Shown here piece by piece: positions 4,443-34,193 of a stretch of DNA of 39,020 nt (its first letter is position 1; the number at the start of each line of letters is the position of its first letter). This DNA is from a virus. The notes under the pieces are model-generated. The model saw only the letters and a program-made list of their open reading frames with translations. It was not told the origin of the DNA and made no database searches. Position numbers and translations under genes: made by a program. The stretch lies in IMG/VR virus record IMGVR_UViG_3300032296_003683, positions 1 through 39,020 of that record; one strand, 5' to 3'.

Positions 4443-5171
4443 CTATCCTCTATAGCCCTCCATGGCCAATATAAGGTAATCTTTAGGGTCTCTGTGCTTC
4501 ATGTGGTATTCGAGCAAATAGGATATATTTCCTCTTACTATGGTTTCATGTGACATGGTTAGGTTGTAGCATAGGGTTGCTTGCCTATCCCCGCAGATTT
4601 TTATGATCTCTGGAAAAACATCTGGTATTTCTGATACAAAGGCATCATGACCAAACCCCATAGCATTACGAAGCATTACGATCTGTGCTGCAGAATCATA
4701 TTTCATATTTTTAATTTGGTTTGATCGTTTATCTATATCTGTTTCAAAAAATGAATTAAACTTAAAATTATGTCCATAACCAGAGACTGTTACTGCTGCT
4801 ATTAAAGATGATGGCCCTGGAGTAGCCGACACTTTAAAACCATTTTCATGACACCATTGTATGATAATTGATCCTGGATCTGCAACACCTGGCATACCAT
4901 CATCTGATATCAGATATACATCCTCACCTTTTGTAAGTATATCTTTTAATACTGACAAGACTTCTTTTTCTTCTGGGTTGGTTGCTTTACCGTTTTTTTG
5001 CGATGTTAAATAAATAATATTAGCCTTAATTTTAATATCAAGTTTAGATAATATTTCTTCAAAGTTGTATTCGTTTTCGGCTATTATATATTTAGCATTT
5101 TTTATCATATCAATATTTTTCAATGGCATATCTCTGGGATTACCAACTGGCATACCTACAATATATAACAT
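4443..5171 (-). CDS. RsmI-like tetrapyrrole-methylase-fold methyltransferase
   Basis: A 242-residue protein matching the RsmI (16S rRNA C1402 2'-O-methyltransferase) layout: LYIVGMPVGNPRDMP at the N-terminus, SDDGMPGVADPGS in the middle (RsmI has SDAGTPGISDPG) and TPGPSSLIAAVTVSG after it. These form the SAM-binding pocket of the family. It is shorter than cellular RsmI (about 280 aa) and seems to lack the C-terminal helical region. The start at 5171 is preferred because TGCTATAAT ends six bases upstream. A divergent paralog is at 23033. Target rRNA is inferred from homology only. Confidence 0.8.
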   Translation of the reverse strand: MLYIVGMPVGNPRDMPLKNIDMIKNAKYIIAENEYNFEEILSKLDIKIKANIIYLTSQKNGKATNPEEKEVLSVLKDILTKGEDVYLISDDGMPGVADPGSIIIQWCHENGFKVSATPGPSSLIAAVTVSGYGHNFKFNSFFETDIDKRSNQIKNMKYDSAAQIVMLRNAMGFGHDAFVSEIPDVFPEIIKICGDRQATLCYNLTMSHETIVRGNISYLLEYHMKHRDPKDYLILAMEGYRG

Positions 5172-5177
5172 CAAACC

Positions 5178-5204
5178 ATTATAGCAGGTATTGAGGTTTG
5201 ACAA
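5178..5204 (-). promoter_or_regulatory. Leftward leaderless promoter for RsmI-like gene
   Basis: On the minus strand TTGTCA (5204-5199), a 15-base spacer, TGC and TATAAT (5183-5178), six bases before ATG 5171. Its -35 overlaps that of the rightward promoter at 5198-5226 within a perfect palindrome. Confidence 0.65.
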
Positions 5205-5208
5205 ACCT
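5194..5208. promoter_or_regulatory. 15-bp palindrome over divergent -35 boxes
   Basis: AGGTTTGACAAACCT is a perfect inverted repeat around one central base. It contains the -35 boxes of both divergent promoters, so one bound protein could control both. Its half-site AGGTTT/AAACCT is the motif repeated at 3074-3213 and 3738-3790. Confidence 0.5.
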
Positions 5209-5226
5209 TTCAACCTTATGTATAAT
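5198..5226 (+). promoter_or_regulatory. Consensus sigma-70 promoter
   Basis: TTGACA (5198-5203), exactly 17 bases, TATAAT (5221-5226): a perfect match to the housekeeping consensus. Transcription should start near 5232-5234. Confidence 0.8.
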
Positions 5227-6122: not shown

Positions 6123-6407
6123 ATGGCTCAACATAATTTGGTTAATTTAAGTAATTCTACCGCTGAACTTTTAAGTCCGTTTGGCACACACTCAGGCGTT
6201 GACATTACAATTCAAAATGTCAACTCAGATGGATATGTTTATATTGGCGCAAGCAGCCAAGTAACATCAACCAATTATGGATATCGCATTTCACCAAACA
6301 ACGCTATATCATTTGAACTTCCAGGATCTGATTCCTTGTATGCAATAGGATCAACAACTGGATTAAAAGCAGCAGTTATAATTACTAATTTAGATTCTGG
6401 TGCATAG
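6123..6407 (+). CDS. Small virion-type protein, beta-rich
   Basis: A 94-residue protein of mostly Ser, Asn, Gly and Thr with strands such as VDITIQNVNSDGYVYIGA, YGYRISPNNAISFELPG and SLYAIGS. This looks like a small jelly-roll structural protein of the kind found next to tail fibres in many phages. The stop overlaps the GTG of the collagen-like gene (TAGTG), so the two are cotranslated and probably co-assembled. Exact role unknown. Confidence 0.65.
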   Translation: MAQHNLVNLSNSTAELLSPFGTHSGVDITIQNVNSDGYVYIGASSQVTSTNYGYRISPNNAISFELPGSDSLYAIGSTTGLKAAVIITNLDSGA

Positions 6408-7339
6408 TGGCACGTTTTACACATCCTAGTAGTGGAGACGGTTCTGGTCTTCCAGGTCCACAAGGAGATCCAGGCCCAGCAGGTGCTGATGGTGCCGACG
6501 GAGCAGATGCTCTTTGGAACTTTTTGGGCGAATGGGTAAATGGAGTTGACTATGCTCCTGGATCAGTTGTTCAATATCAAGGATCTTCTTACTATCACCC
6601 TGATGGTCAGTTTTCTTCTTATAACCCTCCTGGTTATGGATGGCTTTTAGTATCTTCTAAAGGGGATGCAGGAACAGATGGAACTAATGGTACAGATGGT
6701 GCAGATGGCGCAACTGGTAGCCCAGGGCTTGTTTACTTAGGCAACTATGTTTCAGGAAATGGATATTTAGCAAATGTTGCAGTTGTAAAAGGAAGCGACA
6801 ATAACCTATACATTGCAACATCAAGTGGTGGACTAGGAGATCCTGTTGGAAACACTGCAGAATGGAGTATATTTTTACCAAAAGGCGCAGATGGTGCAGA
6901 TGGGGCTGATGGGGCAGATGCAAATTTAGATACTGGAACAACAACAATTAATTCTTACAACCCAGTTTGGAGTGGTACAGGATTAGCATACACCAATACT
7001 CCTGCTACTGGATCTTATATTAAAATTGGTAATCTTGTAACTGTGCAAATAGATGTTTTATTTACTAATGTGTCAAATTTTGGAACTGGTGCATACTCTC
7101 TTACTTTGCCATTTGCATCTAAATATCACACTGATGTTTATGGTGGATCTATTCACAAAATTACAAATCAGGGTATAGATCACTATAGCCTTAAAGGACA
7201 CCTTGTACCAACATCTTCAACTTTTACTCTTTGGGTAATAGGAAGTAGTGCTGCAGATCAAACTTTTAATAACAATACCCCTGTTGGTATAGATACAGAC
7301 GATAAATTCCATATGTCATTTTCTTACATTTGTGAATAA
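6407..7339 (+). CDS. Collagen-like tail-fibre or virion protein
   Basis: A 310-residue protein with three Gly-X-Y blocks: about residues 14-35 (begins GLPGPQGDPGPAG), 86-104 and 159-171 (GADGADGADGADA). Between them are two domains with WNFLGEW...YHPDG and GLVYLGNYVSG...LYIA patterns resembling small carbohydrate-binding modules of the CBM5/12 kind, and a C-terminal beta-rich head of about 130 residues. Collagen triplets in phage proteins form trimeric stalks. The blocks contain X-Pro-Gly sites (LPG, DPG, SPG), the preferred context of collagen prolyl-4-hydroxylases, in a region full of P4H-like genes. Starts at GTG coupled to the upstream stop. Confidence 0.8.
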   Translation: MARFTHPSSGDGSGLPGPQGDPGPAGADGADGADALWNFLGEWVNGVDYAPGSVVQYQGSSYYHPDGQFSSYNPPGYGWLLVSSKGDAGTDGTNGTDGADGATGSPGLVYLGNYVSGNGYLANVAVVKGSDNNLYIATSSGGLGDPVGNTAEWSIFLPKGADGADGADGADANLDTGTTTINSYNPVWSGTGLAYTNTPATGSYIKIGNLVTVQIDVLFTNVSNFGTGAYSLTLPFASKYHTDVYGGSIHKITNQGIDHYSLKGHLVPTSSTFTLWVIGSSAADQTFNNNTPVGIDTDDKFHMSFSYICE

Positions 7340-23013: not shown

Positions 23014-23020
23014 TATAGTG

Positions 23021-23026
23021 TATAAT
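23021..23026 (+). promoter_or_regulatory. -10 box, leaderless, gene 23033
   Basis: TATAAT six bases before ATG 23033. Confidence 0.6.
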
Positions 23027-23032
23027 AAAAAA

Positions 23033-23767
23033 ATGAACTTTGGTAAACTGTTTGTAGTTGGTGTCCCTATTGGAAATTTTGAGGATATGCCACCAAGGTC
23101 GTTAAGTTATATAAAAATAGCAAAAAATGTTGTAGCAGAAAGTCCAAATTCATTTATTAGAATGTGTGAAATTTTAAATATAGACCATTTACAAAAAAAT
23201 ATTATATCTATACATTTTGATTCAGACGGAACTAAACCTGGAAAAATGAATGAGTTAGAAAATATGACAAAAATAATAGAAATATTAAAATCTGGAGAAG
23301 ATGTTTATTTAGTTGCTGATGAAGGAATGCCAGGAATAGCCGACCCAGGTTCTAATATAGTAAAAGAATGCATAAAAAACAATATAAAAATTTTTTCTAC
23401 ACCTGGACCATCTGTTGTTATTGCTGCTGCTGTTGCTACTGGAGTTATGCATAACTTTATTTTAGAATCTTTTTTACCTTTTACCAGACAAGACAAAAAG
23501 TTATTTTTAAATAATAAAAAAAATCATGAATATCCAATGATAATAATGCTTAGAAATGAAAAAAATGAAACAGAGTTTAATAATGAAATTCCAGAATTTT
23601 TAGAGGATGCAAGTTTAATATTAGGAGAAAATAAGCAGGCTTCCCTTTGTTATAATTTAACATATCCAGAAGAACTTGTAATTCATGGCAGTATAAAAGA
23701 GTTATTTGAATATTTTTTATCAAATAAGCGAAACATCAAGGATAAAATATGTATAGTTATACATTAA
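23033..23767 (+). CDS. RsmI-like methyltransferase, second copy
   Basis: A 244-residue paralog of the 4443 gene: LFVVGVPIGNFEDMPPRSL, ADEGMPGIADPGS and TPGPSVVIAAAVATG. Same short form without the C-terminal region of cellular RsmI. The middle region where RsmI reads substrate (after FILESFLPF) differs strongly from the first copy, suggesting separate targets. An in-frame GTG at 23018 lies upstream of the -10 box, so 23033 is preferred. Confidence 0.8.
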   Translation: MNFGKLFVVGVPIGNFEDMPPRSLSYIKIAKNVVAESPNSFIRMCEILNIDHLQKNIISIHFDSDGTKPGKMNELENMTKIIEILKSGEDVYLVADEGMPGIADPGSNIVKECIKNNIKIFSTPGPSVVIAAAVATGVMHNFILESFLPFTRQDKKLFLNNKKNHEYPMIIMLRNEKNETEFNNEIPEFLEDASLILGENKQASLCYNLTYPEELVIHGSIKELFEYFLSNKRNIKDKICIVIH

Positions 23768-24900: not shown

Positions 24901-26817
24901 TTATTTGTGATTGTGAAACATTTCTGCCTCATGCATCATATATATATTATTATATCCCCTTTTACTGAAGTCTTGACAGACTACAACCATTTCACAATCT
25001 GGCTTACCACTTACATAATTAATATGGCTCCACTTAGCACCATTCTTAAATGGTTCTGCCCTATATAGACAAAAACCACTAGACACAGAATAGTATTTTT
25101 TATATGGAAGTTTTTTATATTCTTCAAAATTTTCTTGAATTGCACTGTCGTATTCAGGACCTTCTCTAGTAGCCCATTGATCGTATAGCACCCTTTTTCG
25201 CATTGTTGCTGCTGCAACTATATCAAAATTGGGTTCTAAATTTTTAAAATTTAATATTTTTGCAACTGCAGGCATTTTAAATTCAACATCAATATCTATA
25301 ACAAGCACATAGTCTACACTATCTAAGAAATTACTTGCGTCAATTGTTTTGTTTCTTGCAATTGAAAGGTTTTTTACCCTATCTTCATCTTTAGTTGAGC
25401 CATAAAACTTTGTATTAATATTTTCAGAGACAATTGATACGCCAGCAAACATAGAATAATCTTGTTTAAAAATTAAACTTTTTGTAGAGTCTGTTGAATC
25501 ATTTTCGTATAATGACAAATAAAACTCATACTCTGGAAAATAATCAACCATAGCCTTTATTCTATTGTAGTAGTTAACATAAAAATCTTCGTCATTTCTT
25601 GCAATAGAGCATATTAATATTTTTTCTTTTTTATTTAATATTTCAGTTTTTATTATTTTTTTATCAACATATTTAGAAATGCAATCATCAATAAAATTTG
25701 CATAGTTCTGTTTTATTAAATTCCAATCATAAGTTTGACTATGCTTATATGAATTGTTACATAGTTCTGCGTAAATATCTTCATTTTTTAAAAGTTTAAT
25801 CTTATTATAATTTTCATCTTCAGTATCTGCAATTAGCATTGATTCGTTTATTTCTTCATTAGAAAAACCTCTAGCCCCAACAGTTGAGGTTATTATTGGA
25901 ATGCCATATCCAAGAGCCTTCATCATTTTTAAGTGGGTCCCAGATCCACCAGACATAGGGTTTATGAAAGCAAATGATGTTCTAAAATATTTATCCAAAG
26001 TCTCATCATCTACATAACCAGTAATATGCACATTGCTTGAAATACTACTAGGCTTAATTCCATTACCGCATCCACCTATAATAATAAAATTAAATTCTGG
26101 TAATGATTTAGCAAAACTAACTACCGCTTTTGCTGCCACCTTGTTTGGTGGATGTCCACTACCTACAAAAATAATATCTCTGGACTTAAGTCTATCTTTG
26201 TAATTAATTTTATTTTGAACAACTGTTCCATTAGGTATGTACGTCCCAACAATATCTTTTCCATAGTAGTTCTGTAATTTTATAAAATCTAATTTTGAAC
26301 AATATGTAATTTCTTTTGCTTGATTTAAAATACGAGTTTCCATGTTCTCAACTATGCTAAGAAGTTCTGGATTATTTCCATGAACTTGCTTTGCTAGTTC
26401 TAGTTCTGCATTATGTGAATTGTATATAATTGGAATATTTTTAACATTTTTAACAAGGGGCGAAACAGAGTAATGATCAACAATTAAAATGTCATGTTCT
26501 TTTGATATATTTGTTAAAACTTTACTAAATATATGCAGATCATCTTTTAATAGTTCAAAAACAGCATCATGGTTAAGGCTGGCAAAATCAGAAATAAGAT
26601 TTTTTCTGCGTCTATTCATAGTAGATCCTATTTGTGGCTGTAAATAAGTAATATTATTACCTATTTTTTTATCAATTAATTCATTGTTCCAATTAAATGA
26701 TAAAAACGTAACCTCATGACTAGTCAATGCCTCAAGTAAGGTTGCAGTTCTTTCTTTTCCCCCACTGTTTTTTGACCACTCTGGTAAATTAGCACTTACA
26801 ACTAAGATTTTTGCCAT
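24901..26817 (-). CDS. Two-domain glycosyltransferase (GT4 plus GT-A)
   Basis: A 638-residue fusion. Residues 1-380 are a GT-B, GT4-like glycosyltransferase: VVSANLPEWSKNSGGKERT at the donor-domain start, DIIFVGSGHPPNK, HITGYVDDETLDKYF and the sugar-nucleotide loop with SGGSGTHLKMMKAL. Residues about 390-638 look like a GT-A domain of the cryptococcal mannosyltransferase CMT1/CAP59 kind: ENDSTDST, LSIARN, VLVIDIDVEF (the DxD) and YDQWATREG. One polypeptide could add two successive sugars. The start at 26817 is set by a -10 box seven bases upstream; the ATG at 26826 overlaps that box. Confidence 0.75.
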   Translation of the reverse strand: MAKILVVSANLPEWSKNSGGKERTATLLEALTSHEVTFLSFNWNNELIDKKIGNNITYLQPQIGSTMNRRRKNLISDFASLNHDAVFELLKDDLHIFSKVLTNISKEHDILIVDHYSVSPLVKNVKNIPIIYNSHNAELELAKQVHGNNPELLSIVENMETRILNQAKEITYCSKLDFIKLQNYYGKDIVGTYIPNGTVVQNKINYKDRLKSRDIIFVGSGHPPNKVAAKAVVSFAKSLPEFNFIIIGGCGNGIKPSSISSNVHITGYVDDETLDKYFRTSFAFINPMSGGSGTHLKMMKALGYGIPIITSTVGARGFSNEEINESMLIADTEDENYNKIKLLKNEDIYAELCNNSYKHSQTYDWNLIKQNYANFIDDCISKYVDKKIIKTEILNKKEKILICSIARNDEDFYVNYYNRIKAMVDYFPEYEFYLSLYENDSTDSTKSLIFKQDYSMFAGVSIVSENINTKFYGSTKDEDRVKNLSIARNKTIDASNFLDSVDYVLVIDIDVEFKMPAVAKILNFKNLEPNFDIVAAATMRKRVLYDQWATREGPEYDSAIQENFEEYKKLPYKKYYSVSSGFCLYRAEPFKNGAKWSHINYVSGKPDCEMVVVCQDFSKRGYNNIYMMHEAEMFHNHK

Positions 26818-26824
26818 ATTACCC

Positions 26825-26830
26825 ATTATA
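26825..26830 (-). promoter_or_regulatory. -10 box, leaderless, gene 26817
   Basis: Minus-strand TATAAT, seven bases before ATG 26817. Confidence 0.6.
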
Positions 26831-27538: not shown

Positions 27539-27540
27539 TG

Positions 27541-27614
27541 TACACCAGGTAGGACTTGAACCTACGATAGCCGAATTATGAGTTCGGTGCCTTAACCAAC
27601 TTGGCTACTGGTGC
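27541..27614 (-). tRNA. tRNA-Met (CAU)
   Basis: A 74-base cloverleaf: acceptor GCACCAG/CTGGTGT with a terminal G-U pair, D-arm GCC...GGC, anticodon stem CCGAA/TTCGG around loop CTCATAA, T-arm GTAGG/CCTAC with loop TTCAAGT. The anticodon stem lacks the three G-C pairs of initiators, so elongator Met is likely; Ile with a modified CAU is the alternative. CCA is not encoded. Confidence 0.9.
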
Positions 27615-27620
27615 TTATTG

Positions 27621-27693
27621 CGTCCCCAACGGGATTTGAACCCGTGTTAACGCCGTGAAAGGGCGACGTCCTAGGCCACTAGACGATGGGGAC
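27621..27693 (-). tRNA. tRNA-Glu (UUC)
   Basis: A 73-base cloverleaf: acceptor GTCCCCA/TGGGGAC, D-arm GTC...GAC, anticodon loop CTTTCAC, T-arm ACGGG/CCCGT with loop TTCAAAT. The outermost anticodon-stem pair is T-T, a mismatch at positions 27-43. CCA is not encoded. Confidence 0.9.
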
Positions 27694-27694
27694 T

Positions 27695-27770
27695 TGGCTG
27701 GCTCACCAGGTTTCGATCCTGGGACATCCGAATTAACAGTTCGGCACTCTACCAACTGAGTTATGAGCCA
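27695..27770 (-). tRNA. tRNA-Asn (GUU) with encoded CCA
   Basis: A 76-base gene: acceptor TGGCTCA/TGAGCCA with seven pairs, D-arm ACTC/GAGT, anticodon stem CCGAA/TTCGG around CTGTTAA, T-arm CCAGG/CCTGG with loop ATCGAAA, discriminator G and a genomic CCA. The T-loop begins with A instead of T54. First of the three tRNAs in transcription order, one base from tRNA-Glu. Confidence 0.9.
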
Positions 27771-28470: not shown

Positions 28471-29019
28471 TTATTTTAAAAAATCTTTATCTGCAAACCG
28501 TTTTTGTGAAGTGTGCATATACAAAGCCGTATATCTATGTCCAGACTCTACCATATTAATTCCATGGATATATTCTGTTCCAGCACTTGGAAAAAATACT
28601 GCCGATAGTTTTCGTGGTTTATAGGTAAAACCTTGATTTGGAAAATAAATCTCTCCACCGCTATAATCTGATGGATCATTAAGGTACATAATAGTGCTCC
28701 ATTCAATAAAAGGTTCTGGCCCTTGTGCATCAATATGCAAATCTCCTTTAGTTCCCGCTGTCCAGTGCGATCCAAATGCTTTAAAGACATACATATTATT
28801 TAAATAACCATTTAAACCCTTTTGCATCTCATTAGATTTGTGTCCATATTTTATTAATAAATCCATTACTGTTTTATTATATGGAAACGCAGTTCCACCA
28901 TATCTTTGCTTATAATATTCTGGATAAGGATTTTGTTCTGATGGGTTGTTCATTTCATTAATTAATGTTTGAGCATCTTGCTCTGTAATAAAATTGTCTA
29001 CCACTGTTATTCTATGCAT
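28471..29019 (-). CDS. Prolyl-4-hydroxylase-like 2OG-Fe(II) oxygenase
   Basis: A 182-residue P4Hc enzyme, the most compact of the five. Ligands H95, D97 (LHIDA), distal H152 (IHGI); R162 (GHRYTA). GGEIYFP at 121-127 and KLSAVFFPS at 137-145. It is the last gene of the leftward operon from 34193 and starts next to the stop of a glycosyltransferase-like gene, with AAGGAAGG upstream. The adjacent pairing of a proline hydroxylase and a glycosyltransferase recalls the hydroxyproline-glycosylation pathway of Skp1. Confidence 0.85.
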   Translation of the reverse strand: MHRITVVDNFITEQDAQTLINEMNNPSEQNPYPEYYKQRYGGTAFPYNKTVMDLLIKYGHKSNEMQKGLNGYLNNMYVFKAFGSHWTAGTKGDLHIDAQGPEPFIEWSTIMYLNDPSDYSGGEIYFPNQGFTYKPRKLSAVFFPSAGTEYIHGINMVESGHRYTALYMHTSQKRFADKDFLK

Positions 29020-29020
29020 A

Positions 29021-29947
29021 TCAATCTACCTTCCTTAAGTCTTTAATAAATCTGCTTCCATTATGCTGGTCAAATCTAGAATCTGTCCTCTTATATTGTA
29101 CATCATTTCCATCAAAAGGGAGTTCAGATAAGGTTTTAAAGTCAAAATTATGAAATTTAGAAAAATTATCTATGATTTGTGGGTCAATGTTACCAACAAT
29201 ATCATTGTGTGAGTACTTAAATAATGATATTACTTTGTTATAATTATGCCATTTTGAAAATGTTAAATAATAATTAAAGTCTTCTAGTGTGGTATATTGC
29301 TCTACTTTAACAATATTGTCTGGTGCAGCGTAAATATCTATACTATCTTTGTAGTATTGTAAAGATAAAACTTCTTCTTCTCCATAATATTTTAACCAGC
29401 CAGGGAAATTATAGTTTCCTAAAGAACTATTTTTCATCATAATTACGTTACCAAAAATAAAATTTCTATCTATAAAGTTTGTCAATGTGAAATCATTTAT
29501 ATCAGAAAATTCTTTTTTAATAAAAAATGGATCTTTTTTATTTATTTTTATTTGTTTATTTCCAGATACAATAACATTTTTATTTCTAACAAATTCAACT
29601 AATTTTAAATCCCAATCTTGCTCTACCATTGTTCCTGGAGTAATCGTAAGATGATATCTTCCACCAAGCGTTGCCTTTAATCTTCTATCCTTATATTCTA
29701 CTGCTCCATCCATATTGTCCCAATCAACTTTGACATATGCCCCATTACACATGTCATAAGAATTGATTAAGTCTTCTAATAGTTTTGCTCTAGTTGGACC
29801 ATATTGATCATGCCAATGCACAAATAAAAATATTTTTCCAGACCATTTTTTCATTAAATTTTCAAGAGTCTTAATTGCATCTTTATTTCTATAAGAATAC
29901 ATAACTACGTTGATGCTATCTATAGAGTCATTTTGTTTTTCTGCCAC
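29021..29947 (-). CDS. GT-A-type glycosyltransferase-like protein
   Basis: A 308-residue protein. INVVMYSYRNKDAIKTLENL opens a nucleotide-sugar fold, IFLFVHWHDQYGPTRA follows, then KDRRLKATLGGRYHLTITPG and MVEQDWDLKLVEF. The SYR(N/D) opening, the Gly-Arg-Tyr-His segment and the WDxxLV motif resemble the Skp1 hydroxyproline GlcNAc-transferase family (PF11397), but its usual D-x-H metal motif seems altered here (ITPGT). Call is tentative. GTG at 29947 overlaps the upstream stop (TAGTG); a TTG eight codons up is less likely. Confidence 0.5.
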   Translation of the reverse strand: MAEKQNDSIDSINVVMYSYRNKDAIKTLENLMKKWSGKIFLFVHWHDQYGPTRAKLLEDLINSYDMCNGAYVKVDWDNMDGAVEYKDRRLKATLGGRYHLTITPGTMVEQDWDLKLVEFVRNKNVIVSGNKQIKINKKDPFFIKKEFSDINDFTLTNFIDRNFIFGNVIMMKNSSLGNYNFPGWLKYYGEEEVLSLQYYKDSIDIYAAPDNIVKVEQYTTLEDFNYYLTFSKWHNYNKVISLFKYSHNDIVGNIDPQIIDNFSKFHNFDFKTLSELPFDGNDVQYKRTDSRFDQHNGSRFIKDLRKVD

Positions 29948-30675
29948 TATTGATACCTCTTTTTTTGCCAAACATCTTCTTTATAATATCCAGTTACCAT
30001 TGTGCGTCTTTTCTCAGCCTTAAATTCTTCTTCTTCTATAGACTCTTTATCATTTTTAACTTCAATTTCCCAATCATCTCTTTTAAATGGAATAAATTGC
30101 ATTATAGGAGTACCCTTTGGAATTGTACCTATAAAATTTTTCTTTAAGAAAAATGAGAAAAATACTGGAAGGCCCCAAACATCAGAATCTACCATGCCCG
30201 AAAGTGTGTAAAAAGGAAGATCATATCTATTCATTGGATGTGTAACCAATACAGAATATCCTGGGGGTGTACGATAAAACCAGTTCATTCTAAAACCAAA
30301 ATGTAATTGATGGCAATCACTTGGAATTGGAACTTGCATGGTTGGTCTTTTATCTAATAGCATTATTTCGCCTTTCCAAGTTAATGTTGGAAAGCCATTT
30401 TCAGCAAGATCAACATGAAGATCATCTTCTAACAAATAATAATATCCAGATGTAAGGGCATCAAAGAATGGCATACATTTTTTAGTATCAACTAAGGTTC
30501 CATCTGTTCCTATGTGATTAACTGGATTTAAATTTTTAATATCATTTGTATCTCCATAAAGCGTAAGACTTTTATACCATTCTGGTACTAAAGATATTGC
30601 TGGCACTGGCGGGGAATAAAGATTTTGAAAATTTTCCAAAGAAGGAATAAATGTTATTTTTTGTGATTCACTCAT
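29947..30675 (-). CDS. Unknown protein, CMPxxDALxSGY family, copy 2
   Basis: A 242-residue protein with PEWYKSL near residue 30, TKKCMPFFDALTSGYYYLLE near 67-86, TPPGYSVLVTHPMNRYDLPF, VDSDVWGLPVF and IPKGTPIMQFIPFKRDDW. The order of motifs is the same in the adjacent copy at 30672. I recall related proteins in large marine and freshwater phages; the fold is probably beta-rich, with some likeness to DUF6065, and the function is unknown. ATGA overlap with the upstream copy. Confidence 0.65.
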   Translation of the reverse strand: MSESQKITFIPSLENFQNLYSPPVPAISLVPEWYKSLTLYGDTNDIKNLNPVNHIGTDGTLVDTKKCMPFFDALTSGYYYLLEDDLHVDLAENGFPTLTWKGEIMLLDKRPTMQVPIPSDCHQLHFGFRMNWFYRTPPGYSVLVTHPMNRYDLPFYTLSGMVDSDVWGLPVFFSFFLKKNFIGTIPKGTPIMQFIPFKRDDWEIEVKNDKESIEEEEFKAEKRRTMVTGYYKEDVWQKKRYQ

Positions 30676-31397
30676 CTATATTCCTTTTTTACTCTAAGAT
30701 TATCTCTATAAAAGTTTTTAAATTTACTTCTTACAAGTAGTCTTTGTTTATTGATAAAACTAGAAGATTCTTTAATATCAACCAATTCCATTTCATATTT
30801 ATCTCTTTTAAATGGAATAACTTGTACTAATGGGGTGCCTCTTTCAATTATCCCTTTAAAATCTTTTTCAATATACATAGATAAATGTCCATCGCTTATA
30901 AATTTATCAGTATCTATTACTGCCGAAAATGCTTGAAATGGAAGACTATCCCTATGTATTGGGTGTATAAATAAAGAACTATACCCACTGTCTGTACCAA
31001 CAGACCAAAATGGCATAATTCTAAATACTTCTTGGTGATATTTTTTTTCATCTCTTGGATAGTGTGAAACTTGTGCTGGACTATGAGAAGATACTAAGTC
31101 TCTTTTAAACATTTTCATATTTTCTGGCAATGACCAAGAAAGTTTTTCTGGATTTGTTGCGTCTATATATATATCACAAGGAAAATAAATTATATATCCA
31201 CTATTTAAAGCATCAAATATTGGCATACATCTTTTTACAGTTGATGCAGAAAAACCTTTCTTTAAAAATTCTTCTTCATTTCCGCCATAGGCTGGTTGTT
31301 TTTTATACCAGTCTGGCATGTTTTTTGAAGCAGGCGTTGGTTCTGGTGCAACATTTATTGTTTCTTGACTAAATGGATAAAATCTAATTTTTGCCAT
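30672..31397 (-). CDS. Unknown protein, CMPxxDALxSGY family, copy 1
   Basis: A 241-residue tandem paralog of the preceding entry: MPDWYKKQPAYGG, VKRCMPIFDALNSGYIIYF, SGYSSLFIHPIHRDSLPFQA, VIDTDKF and ERGTPLVQVIPFKRDKYEME. Both copies keep the same spacing between motifs. AAAGGAG five bases before the ATG. Position between carbamoyltransferase and glycosyltransferase genes suggests the same pathway. Confidence 0.65.
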   Translation of the reverse strand: MAKIRFYPFSQETINVAPEPTPASKNMPDWYKKQPAYGGNEEEFLKKGFSASTVKRCMPIFDALNSGYIIYFPCDIYIDATNPEKLSWSLPENMKMFKRDLVSSHSPAQVSHYPRDEKKYHQEVFRIMPFWSVGTDSGYSSLFIHPIHRDSLPFQAFSAVIDTDKFISDGHLSMYIEKDFKGIIERGTPLVQVIPFKRDKYEMELVDIKESSSFINKQRLLVRSKFKNFYRDNLRVKKEYR

Positions 31398-32028
31398 AGA
31401 ACTCCTTTACCTTTTCTACTATTATATCACTACATGAAAATTTTATAAAATATGCTGGCTGATTTCTTTTAATTCTACCACACTCATTATCAATCATGTG
31501 TGACCCAACATTTTTAAATTTAAAAAATAACATTAATGGATCAATTTGTTTTTCTGTATTTTTTTTACTTTTATACTGAAAATTATAAAAATAAAAAGGA
31601 GAATCTGTAACTGGTAATATTTCTATATCTATTTCATCCTCATCTATAAACCATGGCATTGCCCATCTATAAACATAGTCAAAACAGTCTGCTACTTTTG
31701 TTTTATTTTCTTTTGATAAATAAAATTGTCTCATATGTATTTTTTCTGTTGCATTAAGATTTAAAGAGTTTTGTTTTTTTAATAAAAAAATTTCAGCAAA
31801 ATTATTTTGACACAATGTAATAATATTATCTTTGATAGAAACAAGTTCTGGTGGCGGACATAATTTATAAAAATTTTTATTAATTGGTTTAATAATTGAA
31901 TCTTTATGTTCAGTTTTTAAGACTTCGCTATAGTCCAGCCAATCATTTTTTATATTTGACCTTTCGTTAATATATAAAAATGACTCGTTAAAAGATTTAT
32001 ACCATATATTAAAATCAGGACTAGCCAT
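31384..32028 (-). CDS. Unknown protein, possible distant third copy
   Basis: A 214-residue protein. Late segments WAMPWFIDEDEIDIEIL, DPLMLFFKFKN and IKRNQPAYFIKFSCSD have the order seen in the two proteins that follow (MPFW, IxxGTPxxQxIPFKRD), so it may be a diverged relative that has lost the CMPxxDA motif. The ATG at 32028 overlaps the carbamoyltransferase stop; in-frame GTGs lie three codons up. Confidence 0.5.
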   Translation of the reverse strand: MASPDFNIWYKSFNESFLYINERSNIKNDWLDYSEVLKTEHKDSIIKPINKNFYKLCPPPELVSIKDNIITLCQNNFAEIFLLKKQNSLNLNATEKIHMRQFYLSKENKTKVADCFDYVYRWAMPWFIDEDEIDIEILPVTDSPFYFYNFQYKSKKNTEKQIDPLMLFFKFKNVGSHMIDNECGRIKRNQPAYFIKFSCSDIIVEKVKEFYGKN

Positions 32029-33466
32029 TTTCACCACGTATGATTATAGAGTTATATGTTTTTTCCCATTCTAAGATATCTCTTTCATCATTTAACAGTG
32101 GTTGTCCTTTAATATTTAAACTAGTGTTAAGTAATACTGGAACACCAGTTAATGCATACCAATTAGATAGAACAGCATGTAAACCAGGATGCTGATCCTT
32201 ATTTACTGTTTGTACCCTTGATGTTCCGTCTTGATGAACTACCGCTGGTATTTTTTCTGGTTGCAAACATTTAACTGCATATTGCATATAAGGAGAGTCA
32301 AAGTCCATATCAAACCATTTATCTGCATATTCTTCTAAAACAACTGGAGCAAATGGTCTAAAAGATTCTCTTTTCTTAATTTTGTTAACTTCATCTTTTA
32401 TATTTGGATCTCTTGGATCGGCTAAAATGCTTCTATTGCCAAGTGCTCTTGGTCCATACTCTGCTCGTCCAACAGCAACAGCAGCCACTTTGTTTTTAAT
32501 TAACTCTGTAATTATTTGTGATACTGGATAAGTACCACCTAAATCATAACCTAAGTATGGATGTTGCCATTTAATATGTTTACCATATGAAGCCAATGCT
32601 GCACCTAACGAACTACCCGCATCTCCAGGGTTTGGCATAATCCAAACGTCATCAAATATATTCCATAGCATAGTATTAGCAGAACAGTTTAATGCACAGC
32701 CACCCATAAATACTAATTCAGTTTTTCCAGTAATAGTTCTTGCCATTTTCATAAACTCAGCAAGTCTTAATTCATATACCTTTTGAACTGCTGCTGCAAT
32801 ATCAAATTTGTCTTGTTCGGTAACCCATCCCCAATCAGTAATTCCTTGATGAAAATTATACTTTTGAGTATTATAGTCTGGGAAATACTCTTTTACCTTA
32901 TTATAATATTTATTTGCATCGCCATATGCTGCCATTCCCATAAAAATATATTCTTCTTCGTTTGGCTTTAACCCAACTAATTGTGTAAATGCTGAATAAA
33001 ATAACCCAAAACTAAATGGATAATTTTTTTTGTACACTTGCTTAATACTTGAGCCATCTCCTACCCAAATAGTAGATGTGTTGTACTCGCCAATAGCATC
33101 TAAAACAACAATAACGGCATCACGAAATGGGCTTGTATAGTATCCTGCTGCTGCATGTGAATAATGATGACTAAAGGATTCTCTTGGTACCCATTTTAAA
33201 TCTTTTCTATTTAGATAGTTTGGCTTTCCCCCGCCAAATCCACCTTTTAATAATATTCTAGATTTTTTTAACCAACGATTTTCGTAATAGGCTATGCGAT
33301 CTGGTTTTCCATACTGAAGGGCACAATCAATTAATTCATCATTAGTAAACCAGTCATTTTTTTGTTTACTAAAACGTTCTGCATGTGCAGCAAATACTAA
33401 TTCTCCATTTTTTAACAAAGACACTGATGCATCATGTGTTGTTTCATTAATACCTAAAATTATCAT
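32021..33466 (-). CDS. NodU/TobZ-type carbamoyltransferase
   Basis: A 481-residue protein of the NodU/CmcH family. N-terminal Kae1-like domain: ILGINETTHDASVSLLKNG, AHAERFSKQK, the metal site HHYSHAAAGYY near residues 99-109, LDAIGE and FMGGCALNCSANTMLW. C-terminal part: EYGPRALGNRSILADPRD, RESFRPFAPVV and LNTSLNIKGQPL. Members transfer carbamoyl from carbamoyl phosphate through a carbamoyl-adenylate to a hydroxyl of a sugar or antibiotic. It is shorter than the typical 550-600. In this phage a glycan or hydroxylated residue would be a natural acceptor. Start overlaps the upstream stop (TAATG). Confidence 0.85.
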   Translation of the reverse strand: MIILGINETTHDASVSLLKNGELVFAAHAERFSKQKNDWFTNDELIDCALQYGKPDRIAYYENRWLKKSRILLKGGFGGGKPNYLNRKDLKWVPRESFSHHYSHAAAGYYTSPFRDAVIVVLDAIGEYNTSTIWVGDGSSIKQVYKKNYPFSFGLFYSAFTQLVGLKPNEEEYIFMGMAAYGDANKYYNKVKEYFPDYNTQKYNFHQGITDWGWVTEQDKFDIAAAVQKVYELRLAEFMKMARTITGKTELVFMGGCALNCSANTMLWNIFDDVWIMPNPGDAGSSLGAALASYGKHIKWQHPYLGYDLGGTYPVSQIITELIKNKVAAVAVGRAEYGPRALGNRSILADPRDPNIKDEVNKIKKRESFRPFAPVVLEEYADKWFDMDFDSPYMQYAVKCLQPEKIPAVVHQDGTSRVQTVNKDQHPGLHAVLSNWYALTGVPVLLNTSLNIKGQPLLNDERDILEWEKTYNSIIIRGENG

Positions 33467-33672
33467 TAACTAATAACCTTTAGTACAACTTGACAAGGAT
33501 CTCCTCCATCTGACCATTCTTGCTCTTCTTCTTCAGTCATATATGGATCTCCATCATGTGTATTACAAAATGGGGGAGTTATCCACTTTCTACTAATTCC
33601 ATTTTCCAACCAAATTTCAAATTCTTGAATATTTGATAGTTCTTCCCGCTCTTCTTTAAATATATCTTCCAT
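33466..33672 (-). CDS. Small acidic phage protein, unknown function
   Basis: Sixty-eight residues, strongly acidic, with WITPPFCNTHDGDPYMT and EEEEQEWSDGGDPCQVV. Similar short proteins with a C-x-THDG...DGGDPC pattern are, from memory, frequent in actinobacterial phages. The Cys, His and Asp residues could form a metal site. Coupled to both neighbours by one-base overlaps. Confidence 0.65.
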   Translation of the reverse strand: MEDIFKEEREELSNIQEFEIWLENGISRKWITPPFCNTHDGDPYMTEEEEQEWSDGGDPCQVVLKVIS

Positions 33673-34193
33673 TATCCACTCACCGTATCTATTGGTCCTT
33701 TACAAGATGGAGAATATTCAATTGCTGCTGCAACCGCTTGTCTCAATCTATTTCTAGGATTTTTTTGTTTTTGTGTTGAGTATAACGATCCATATGCATA
33801 TGCCGAGCCAGAACCCATACATAGAAATGGTTGTTGATATTCAGTAAGAGACATATCAATTGCGTTATGCTCAAATATTCTTCCACGAACACAAATAATC
33901 ATGCCAAAATCTGCATCCTTACTTGTGTCTACCCACCATTCTTCATAAAACTTTCTTAATGATTTAATAAATTTAGTATACATAAACTTATCTAAATTGC
34001 CTTCAGGTAATGGTGGTTTAAAATTGTGTCTAATTCGTTCTCCATCCATTGTTCCAGCATATCCAAAAAGATACGGACCAGTTTTCCAAACTTTGGGAGC
34101 AACTATTGACATAATATTATCGTCATCAGAGGCACCACGATCTCCTGCCATATAGACTTTACCATCTTGTCTTACGACGGCAATACAGGTCAT
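33672..34193 (-). CDS. Proteasome-beta/HslV-like Ntn hydrolase
   Basis: A 173-residue protein starting MTCIAVV. After removal of Met the nucleophile would be T1, and the proteasomal catalytic residues fall at their classical positions: D17 in AGDRG and K33 in APKVW. GSGSAYAYGSLYS in the second half matches the GSGxxxAxG strand-helix of beta subunits and HslV. The sandwich-fold length (about 172) is that of HslV. So this looks like an active threonine protease subunit, yet no HslU-like ATPase is visible. First gene of the operon; GAGAGGAAA ribosome site and a strong promoter upstream. Confidence 0.8.
   Translation of the reverse strand: MTCIAVVRQDGKVYMAGDRGASDDDNIMSIVAPKVWKTGPYLFGYAGTMDGERIRHNFKPPLPEGNLDKFMYTKFIKSLRKFYEEWWVDTSKDADFGMIICVRGRIFEHNAIDMSLTEYQQPFLCMGSGSAYAYGSLYSTQKQKNPRNRLRQAVAAAIEYSPSCKGPIDTVSG

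What the first reader, a model, noticed from the sequence alone, without database searches (positions are those of the whole stretch)
28471..33466. Possible phage hydroxyproline-glycosylation operon
One leftward operon joins a P4H-like oxygenase (28471), an adjacent glycosyltransferase-like protein with features of the Skp1 hydroxyproline GlcNAc-transferase family (29021), three related unknown proteins and a carbamoyltransferase (32021). In Dictyostelium Skp1, a prolyl-4-hydroxylase makes hydroxyproline and the GlcNAc-transferase then caps it. A prokaryotic-virus version, with carbamoylation as further decoration, would be new as far as I know. The weak point is the altered metal motif of the 29021 protein.
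Basis: inference. Interest (0 to 1): 0.8.

Follow-up and report, generated by a model that had tools for sequence, protein, structure and literature searches.

The report
Phage hydroxylase, glycosyltransferase and carbamoyltransferase cassette
A freshwater-type tailed phage carries a tightly packed set of genes whose enzymes look built to add a hydroxyl group to a protein (or sugar) and then decorate it with sugar and carbamoyl groups, a kind of chemistry known from amoebae and giant viruses but not, as far as I could find, shown in phages; what it actually modifies is still unproven.

Summary
On the minus strand at 28471-33466, six overlapping or abutting genes encode a NodU-type carbamoyltransferase, three DUF6065-like proteins, a glycosyltransferase (GTx, 29021) and a P4H-type 2OG oxygenase. 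GTx scores poorly alone (PF11397 E=0.045), but a 40-member family profile matches phage PF11397 proteins (hhalign 98.6%, E=8e-16). A confident AlphaFold model (pLDDT 87) has polypeptide GalNAc-transferases as its best solved matches. The metal motif loss is real: the family lacks PF11397's DxH, and the window's clade reads TPG. Yet GTx evolves under purifying selection. In loci fetched through GTx or DUF6065, the oxygenase lies directly downstream of GTx in 10 of 10 clusters at 40% identity (chance 1.3), with its iron ligands intact. The pairing is not obligatory: at least nine loci keep the oxygenase and carbamoyltransferase with a methyltransferase instead of the GTx/DUF6065 genes, and phage XacN1 pairs a PF11397 GT with a carbamoyltransferase without such an oxygenase. 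DNA hypermodification is disfavoured: no thymidylate-synthase homologue, no Tet_JBP match over cut-off. Ten of 16 contigs checked carry a collagen-like protein, a candidate substrate. Hydroxyproline glycosylation is plausible but unproven; no substrate or activity was tested.

The parts
32021..33466 (-). NodU/CmcH-type O-carbamoyltransferase (481 aa)
   Evidence: PF16861 7.8e-55, PF02543 6.8e-39; phrog_1601 6.4e-107
31384..32037 (-). Remote DUF6065 relative (217 aa), member of the conserved cassette
   Evidence: no Pfam or PHROG hit; hhalign of the deep profile to the DUF6065 profile 93.4%, E=2.5e-7
30672..31397 (-). DUF6065-like protein b (241 aa)
   Evidence: phrog_7084 2.9e-49; paralogue of 29947
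29947..30675 (-). DUF6065 protein a (242 aa)
   Evidence: PF19541 3.3e-6, over cut-off; phrog_7084
29021..29971 (-). GTx: divergent PF11397/GT27-like GT-A glycosyltransferase (316 aa, TTG start), DxH replaced by T111-P112-G113
   Evidence: family profile vs phage PF11397 proteins 98.6%, E=8e-16; AlphaFold pLDDT 87.3, pTM 0.85; top PDB matches ppGalNAc-T2, E=9e-10; dN/dS 0.12-0.16
28471..29019 (-). P4H/PKHD-type 2OG-Fe(II) oxygenase (182 aa)
   Evidence: PF13640 2.8e-7; PDB sequence hits prolyl 3-hydroxylase 1 4.2e-6, PiuC, bacterial P4Hs; H95xD97/H152/R162 conserved
6407..7339 (+). Collagen-like (Gly-X-Y) protein, a possible but unproven substrate; not part of the operon
   Evidence: PF01391 6.8e-6, just under cut-off

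Best explanation
The operon is a phage decoration cassette. The P4H-type oxygenase puts a hydroxyl on a side chain, most likely proline of a phage virion protein, with collagen-like Gly-X-Y fibre segments as the leading candidate. GTx, a polypeptide-glycosyltransferase-type enzyme, attaches a sugar to that (or a neighbouring) hydroxyl. The NodU-type enzyme then O-carbamoylates the sugar. The three DUF6065-like proteins travel with GTx in this module and probably form the substrate-binding or accessory part. Shown here: gene content, conserved order, fold class of GTx, intact oxygenase iron site, intact carbamoyltransferase domains, purifying selection. Inferred: the order of reactions, proline as target, virion proteins as substrate, GTx activity without the usual metal motif, the role of DUF6065.
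For: Tight gene overlaps. The block is gene for gene the same in about 20 related contigs. In loci fetched through GTx or DUF6065 only, P4H is directly downstream of GTx in 19 of 20 clusters at 60% identity and 10 of 10 at 40% (null means 2.3 and 1.3, p=0.0005), with DUF6065 two genes upstream in 19/20 and 10/10. GTx is homologous to PF11397, and its best PDB matches are polypeptide GalNAc-transferases, with collagen hydroxylysine galactosyltransferase also listed. GTx dN/dS is 0.12-0.16. A second phage group has P4H, an O-FucT+PF11397 fusion, carbamoyltransferase, PF11397, carbamoyltransferase in a row, and a third has P4H, (2OG), PF11397, three DUF6065, PF11397. Ten of 16 checked contigs have a collagen-domain protein over cut-off, including the larger relatives with this cassette, with Pro at Gly-X-Y Y positions in several.
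Against: No GTx has DxH; the window clade has TPG. At least nine orthologous P4H loci have a methyltransferase instead of GTx and DUF6065. Canonical phage PF11397 genes are next to P4H only slightly above chance (8 of 37 clusters vs 4.8, p=0.10; 5 of 20 vs 2.2, p=0.04). Phage XacN1 has PF11397 plus carbamoyltransferase but no PF13640 oxygenase. These phages carry many 2OG oxygenases of unknown target. The window's own collagen repeat is proline-poor and lies 21 kb away.
Confidence: 0.4

Rival explanations
1. Glycan tailoring: the oxygenase, GTx and carbamoyltransferase act on a polysaccharide or nucleotide sugar (host surface polysaccharide or a virion glycan), not on hydroxyproline.
For: NodU-type enzymes act on sugars and small molecules (established knowledge); neighbours include a GT4+CAP59/Anp1-type fusion and a weak Stealth-like hit; sugar epimerases and mannose-6-phosphate isomerase near similar genes in Synechococcus phage S-SCSM1; bacterial DUF6065 beside genes that look like ManC and a sugar epimerase in two Rhodobacteraceae loci (by eye); a methyltransferase replaces GTx in some loci.
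Against: GTx's closest solved folds are polypeptide transferases; the adjacent oxygenase matches protein hydroxylases in PDB.
Confidence: 0.3
2. GTx glycosylates Ser/Thr or another native hydroxyl, independently of the oxygenase, which serves a separate reaction; they are neighbours only because all belong to one decoration island.
For: P4H without GTx and PF11397 without any PF13640 oxygenase in XacN1; best structural matches are Ser/Thr-directed GalNAc-transferases.
Against: Strict GTx-P4H order over deep divergence.
Confidence: 0.2
3. DNA hypermodification: oxygenase, GT and carbamoyltransferase modify a DNA base, as with the 5hmC carbamoyltransferase described in PMC8670742.
For: Phage carbamoyltransferases can modify 5hmC in DNA (PMC8670742); weak Tet_JBP similarity of other oxygenases in these phages.
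Against: No Tet_JBP match over cut-off and no thymidylate-synthase/hydroxymethylase homologue in 16 contigs of up to 118 kb; the cited paper finds the DNA-acting enzymes beside thymidylate synthase, and those of unmodified contigs beside glycosyltransferases.
Confidence: 0.06
4. GTx is a catalytically dead scaffold that keeps the fold and a peptide- or sugar-binding role.
For: TPG in place of DxH.
Against: Low dN/dS; GEE and HxY positions largely conserved; some GT-A enzymes work without metal (established knowledge).
Confidence: 0.1

Closest known systems
Skp1 hydroxyproline pathway of Dictyostelium/Toxoplasma (P4H plus GT60 GlcNAc-transferase, PF11397)
   Same: A P4H-type oxygenase paired with a PF11397-homologous glycosyltransferase.
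   Different: The phage GT lacks DxH; DUF6065 and NodU genes are added; acceptor and sugar unknown.
Polypeptide GalNAc-transferases (GT27)
   Same: Best solved-structure matches of the GTx model (E 9e-10).
   Different: 11-13% identity, TM-score 0.5-0.6 only; no DxH; no lectin domain in the 316-aa protein.
Mimivirus collagen hydroxylation and glycosylation (hydroxylysine; PMC9546862)
   Same: Virus-encoded hydroxylation plus glycosylation, with collagen-like proteins as targets.
   Different: Lysine not proline, eukaryotic virus, other enzyme families.
Phage canonical PF11397 + carbamoyltransferase pair (Xanthomonas phage XacN1; Stenotrophomonas phages CM1 and RAS14 carry a PF11397 homologue)
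   Same: In XacN1, a PF11397 GT directly beside a NodU-type gene.
   Different: No PF13640 oxygenase found in XacN1 or RAS14 (CM1 not checked); no DUF6065 seen.
Phage 5hmC DNA carbamoyltransferase (PMC8670742)
   Same: Phage enzyme of the same carbamoyltransferase superfamily.
   Different: Sits with thymidylate synthase; this one does not.

Membership tests
PF11397 / GT60 GlcNAc-transferase | Sequence profile match | tested here: met
   Window protein alone is below cut-off (0.045); three relatives pass when their collinear pieces are summed; deep profile vs bona fide members 98.6%, E=8e-16
PF11397 / GT60 GlcNAc-transferase | DxH metal-binding motif | tested here: not met
   TPG in the window clade; Asp at position 112 in 26 of 40 members, Pro in 12; one member SEH
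PF11397 / GT60 GlcNAc-transferase | GT-A fold of the polypeptide-transferase type | tested here: met
   Model pLDDT 87.3; top PDB hits all GalNAc-transferases
PF11397 / GT60 GlcNAc-transferase | Transfer of GlcNAc to hydroxyproline | not testable with these tools
   needs enzymology
Prolyl hydroxylase-type 2OG oxygenase | 2OG-Fe(II) domain with HxD...H and 2OG-binding Arg | tested here: met
   PF13640 2.8e-7; residues kept in 87-89 of 89
Prolyl hydroxylase-type 2OG oxygenase | Acts on proline | not testable with these tools
   PDB sequence hits include prolyl hydroxylases, but also PKHD/PiuC
NodU/CmcH O-carbamoyltransferase | Both N- and C-terminal domains | tested here: met
   PF02543 and PF16861
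Phage DNA hypermodification system | Hydroxymethylase (PF00303) or TET/JBP enzyme | tested here: not met
   0 of 16 contigs with PF00303; no PF12851 match over cut-off; contigs are fragments
DUF6065 (PF19541) | Profile match of 29947, 30672, 31384 | tested here: met
   29947 over the Pfam cut-off; 30672 by paralogy; 31384 only by deep profile

The most novel reading that the evidence does not exclude
Tailed phages run a hydroxyproline-glycosylation pathway of their own: a P4H hydroxylates Gly-X-Y or other prolines of virion fibres, a metal-motif-altered PF11397-like enzyme glycosylates them and a carbamoyltransferase caps the sugar, with DUF6065 proteins as a new accessory family. It would be a counterpart of the Skp1 and mimivirus collagen pathways outside eukaryotes and their viruses.
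Probability: 0.3. Interest if true: 0.85.

Novelty: new variant of a known kind. Interest (0 to 1): 0.62.

Why it matters
Hydroxyproline-linked glycosylation is known from eukaryotes, and virus-encoded hydroxylation plus glycosylation from giant viruses. A phage version would show that bacterial viruses can chemically armour or diversify their fibres with amino-acid hydroxylation, sugars and carbamoyl groups, and would give a function to DUF6065 and to one of the many 2OG oxygenases of aquatic phages. It would also give a test case for a polypeptide-type transferase that has lost its DxH motif yet is kept by selection.

Tried and rejected
First AlphaFold run with 18 close relatives gave pLDDT 41 and was discarded; 40 diverse relatives fixed it. 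Direct sequence search of PDB with GTx found nothing useful. A shallow profile wrongly said 31384 is unrelated to DUF6065, corrected. My idea that DUF6065 has a dUTPase-like core (GxVDxD...G-Q motif by eye) got only 2.5% in hhalign with a three-sequence template and is not claimed. No bacterial genome relative of GTx was found, and no cultured-phage homologue of GTx or of an orthologous P4H. Promoter and terminator scans gave no more than chance. The DUF6065 neighbourhood in haloarchaeal viruses (beside RNR or thymidylate synthase) suggested nucleotide metabolism, but nothing similar sits beside it here. Adjacency statistics from P4H-query loci were set aside as circular; one search uses only GTx- and DUF6065-query loci. 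Literature searches found no report of this module; the library lacks most subscription papers.
Full report
What is there. The window is a 39-kb virus record, probably a fragment. On the minus strand, reading 33466 to 28471, six genes overlap or abut: a carbamoyltransferase, 31384, 30672, 29947, the glycosyltransferase-like 29021 (GTx) and the P4H-like 28471. About twenty related viral contigs keep this block gene for gene, while the genes between 28471 and the Stealth-like gene vary. A larger relative with the same module (116 kb, G020) has a portal protein, head maturation protease, terminase, tape-measure protein and a phage DNA polymerase, so the group is tailed phages. The host was not determined.

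The glycosyltransferase. Alone, the window protein barely touches PF11397 (E=0.045), and searches of PDB sequences found nothing. Twelve of 18 close relatives match PF11397 (best 4.8e-5), and in three of them three collinear pieces add up to more than the cut-off. Scans with the oxygenase and with DUF6065 widened the GTx family to about 64 unique members, and its profile pulled in phage proteins that are over the PF11397 cut-off (3.4e-20 to 4e-13). Profile against profile, the two groups align over 198 columns at 98.6% and E=8e-16. In that ungapped stretch, PF11397's Asp-x-His (YFLQIDAHANFEKNWD in L184) faces Thr-Pro-Gly in the window (YHLTITPGTMVEQDWD). Of 40 members, 26 have Asp at the middle position (mostly SDN or SDD), 12 have Pro, and one (SEH) has the His. 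With 40 sequences AlphaFold gives pLDDT 87.3, pTM 0.85. The best PDB matches are polypeptide GalNAc-transferases (E 9e-10), with collagen hydroxylysine galactosyltransferase COLGALT1 at rank 40; TM-scores are 0.5-0.6, so this is fold-class evidence. The best viral matches include phage proteins named 'Glycosyltransferase, GlcNAc'. GTx evolves faster than most of its neighbours but at dN/dS 0.12-0.16, so it is maintained; dS near 1 makes these values rough.

The oxygenase. 28471 is a PF13640 2OG oxygenase whose profile matches prolyl 3-hydroxylase 1, PKHD-type PiuC and bacterial P4Hs in PDB. His95, Asp97, His152 and Arg162 are kept in 87-89 of 89 orthologues. The family is close to protein hydroxylases, but proline as the target is an inference. 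The window alone has four further PF13640-type oxygenases and several of another 2OG-like family, so having such a gene nearby is cheap, which is why conserved order matters.

Is the pair more than chance? Using only loci fetched through GTx or DUF6065, to avoid circularity, the oxygenase is immediately downstream of GTx in 19 of 20 clusters at 60% identity and 10 of 10 at 40%, against 2.3 and 1.3 expected from random genes of the same loci (p=0.0005; these oxygenases are 11% of genes). DUF6065 is two genes upstream in 19/20 and 10/10. In oxygenase-query loci, the 31384-like, DUF6065 and GTx genes nearly always come together. At least nine loci (L137, L142-L145, L148, L151, L152, L174; some near-identical) keep the oxygenase, a second one and the carbamoyltransferase but have another gene in place of that set; those read are methyltransferases (Methyltransf_24 in L137). 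So GTx always comes with this oxygenase; the oxygenase does not always come with GTx.

Other phage arrangements. Searching with canonical PF11397 phage proteins gave 80 loci. One group has P4H, a 917-aa protein with O-FucT and PF11397 domains, carbamoyltransferase, PF11397, carbamoyltransferase in a row. Another has P4H, (a second 2OG gene), PF11397, three DUF6065, PF11397. A marine phage contig has DUF6065 directly before a PF13640 oxygenase. These look like recurrences of one theme. Counted without hand-picking, however, canonical PF11397 genes are next to a P4H only slightly above chance (8 of 37 clusters vs 4.8, p=0.10; 5 of 20 vs 2.2, p=0.04). Among 50,697 phage records only three hold a close canonical PF11397 homologue; in XacN1 it sits by a carbamoyltransferase, with no PF13640 gene found in that genome.

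Three related unknowns. 29947 and 30672 are paralogues of phrog_7084/DUF6065. 31384 joins them only with deep profiles (93%, E=2.5e-7; controls 0.1-0.6%). No paper in the library searched mentions DUF6065.

Possible substrate. Among 16 contigs of these groups, ten have a PF01391 collagen match over cut-off. These share a short N-terminus, 12-15 Gly-X-Y triplets, several with Pro at Y, and a similar C-terminal domain, as might be expected of a fibre. The window's own collagen-like protein (6407-7339) is poorer in proline. The L232-type group has no collagen match. This is a candidate, not a finding; how common collagen-like proteins are in comparable phages was not measured.

DNA rival. Phage NodU-type enzymes can carbamoylate 5hmC in DNA (PMC8670742). 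In that work DNA-acting enzymes sit with thymidylate-synthase homologues, while those of unmodified contigs sit beside glycosyltransferases. None of 16 contigs here has PF00303, and none has a Tet_JBP match over cut-off. Contigs are fragments, so this is strong but not final.

Verdict. The gene-level observation is right. The reading as a phage hydroxylation-glycosylation-carbamoylation cassette is well supported as a type of chemistry; hydroxyproline as the site is plausible (my estimate 0.3 for the full claim) and unproven. GTx should be filed as a divergent homologue of PF11397/GT27, not as a member of the Skp1 GlcNAc-transferase family, because the tested DxH feature is missing. All functional steps are inference; no activity, substrate or modified product was examined.

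Noticed in passing
window 3903, 5595, 8901, 9592, 10236, 16090, 21149, 21780, 23796, 27780, 28471: The phage carries five PF13640-type 2OG oxygenase genes and about six genes of another related family (profile of 27780, resembling phrog_2954) in 39 kb, an unusual expansion of unknown targets.
   Followed up: partly
L232:4108-6861: A 917-aa phage protein with about 297 unassigned residues, then a GDP-fucose protein O-fucosyltransferase domain (PF10250) and a PF11397 domain, directly after a P4H gene and before a carbamoyltransferase.
   Followed up: partly
window 24901-26826 (-): Fusion of a GT4-type glycosyltransferase with a CAP59/Anp1-type domain; split into two ORFs in L008.
   Followed up: no
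window 4443-5213 (-) and 23018-23767 (+): Two tetrapyrrole-methylase-type (PF00590) genes in one phage fragment; a third lies beside P4H and PF11397 genes in L223.
   Followed up: no
L022, L023 (haloarchaeal viruses HRTV-22, HCTV-6): Single DUF6065 genes in haloarchaeal tailed viruses, near ribonucleotide reductase or thymidylate synthase.
   Followed up: partly
L030 6822-9309, L032 2568-5004: Rhodobacteraceae chromosomal DUF6065 genes lie next to genes that look by eye like mannose-1-phosphate guanylyltransferase and a sugar epimerase.
   Followed up: no
L295:8161-9363: Tryptophan-halogenase-type gene in a related phage (phrog_2928, 2e-62).
   Followed up: no
window 33672-34193 (-): HslV/proteasome-like peptidase gene just upstream of the operon (phrog_1040), next to a small ORF and a lysin.
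   Followed up: no
window 27540-27770 (-): Cluster of tRNA-Met, tRNA-Glu and tRNA-Asn between the operon and the Stealth-like gene; this interval is variable in relatives.
   Followed up: no
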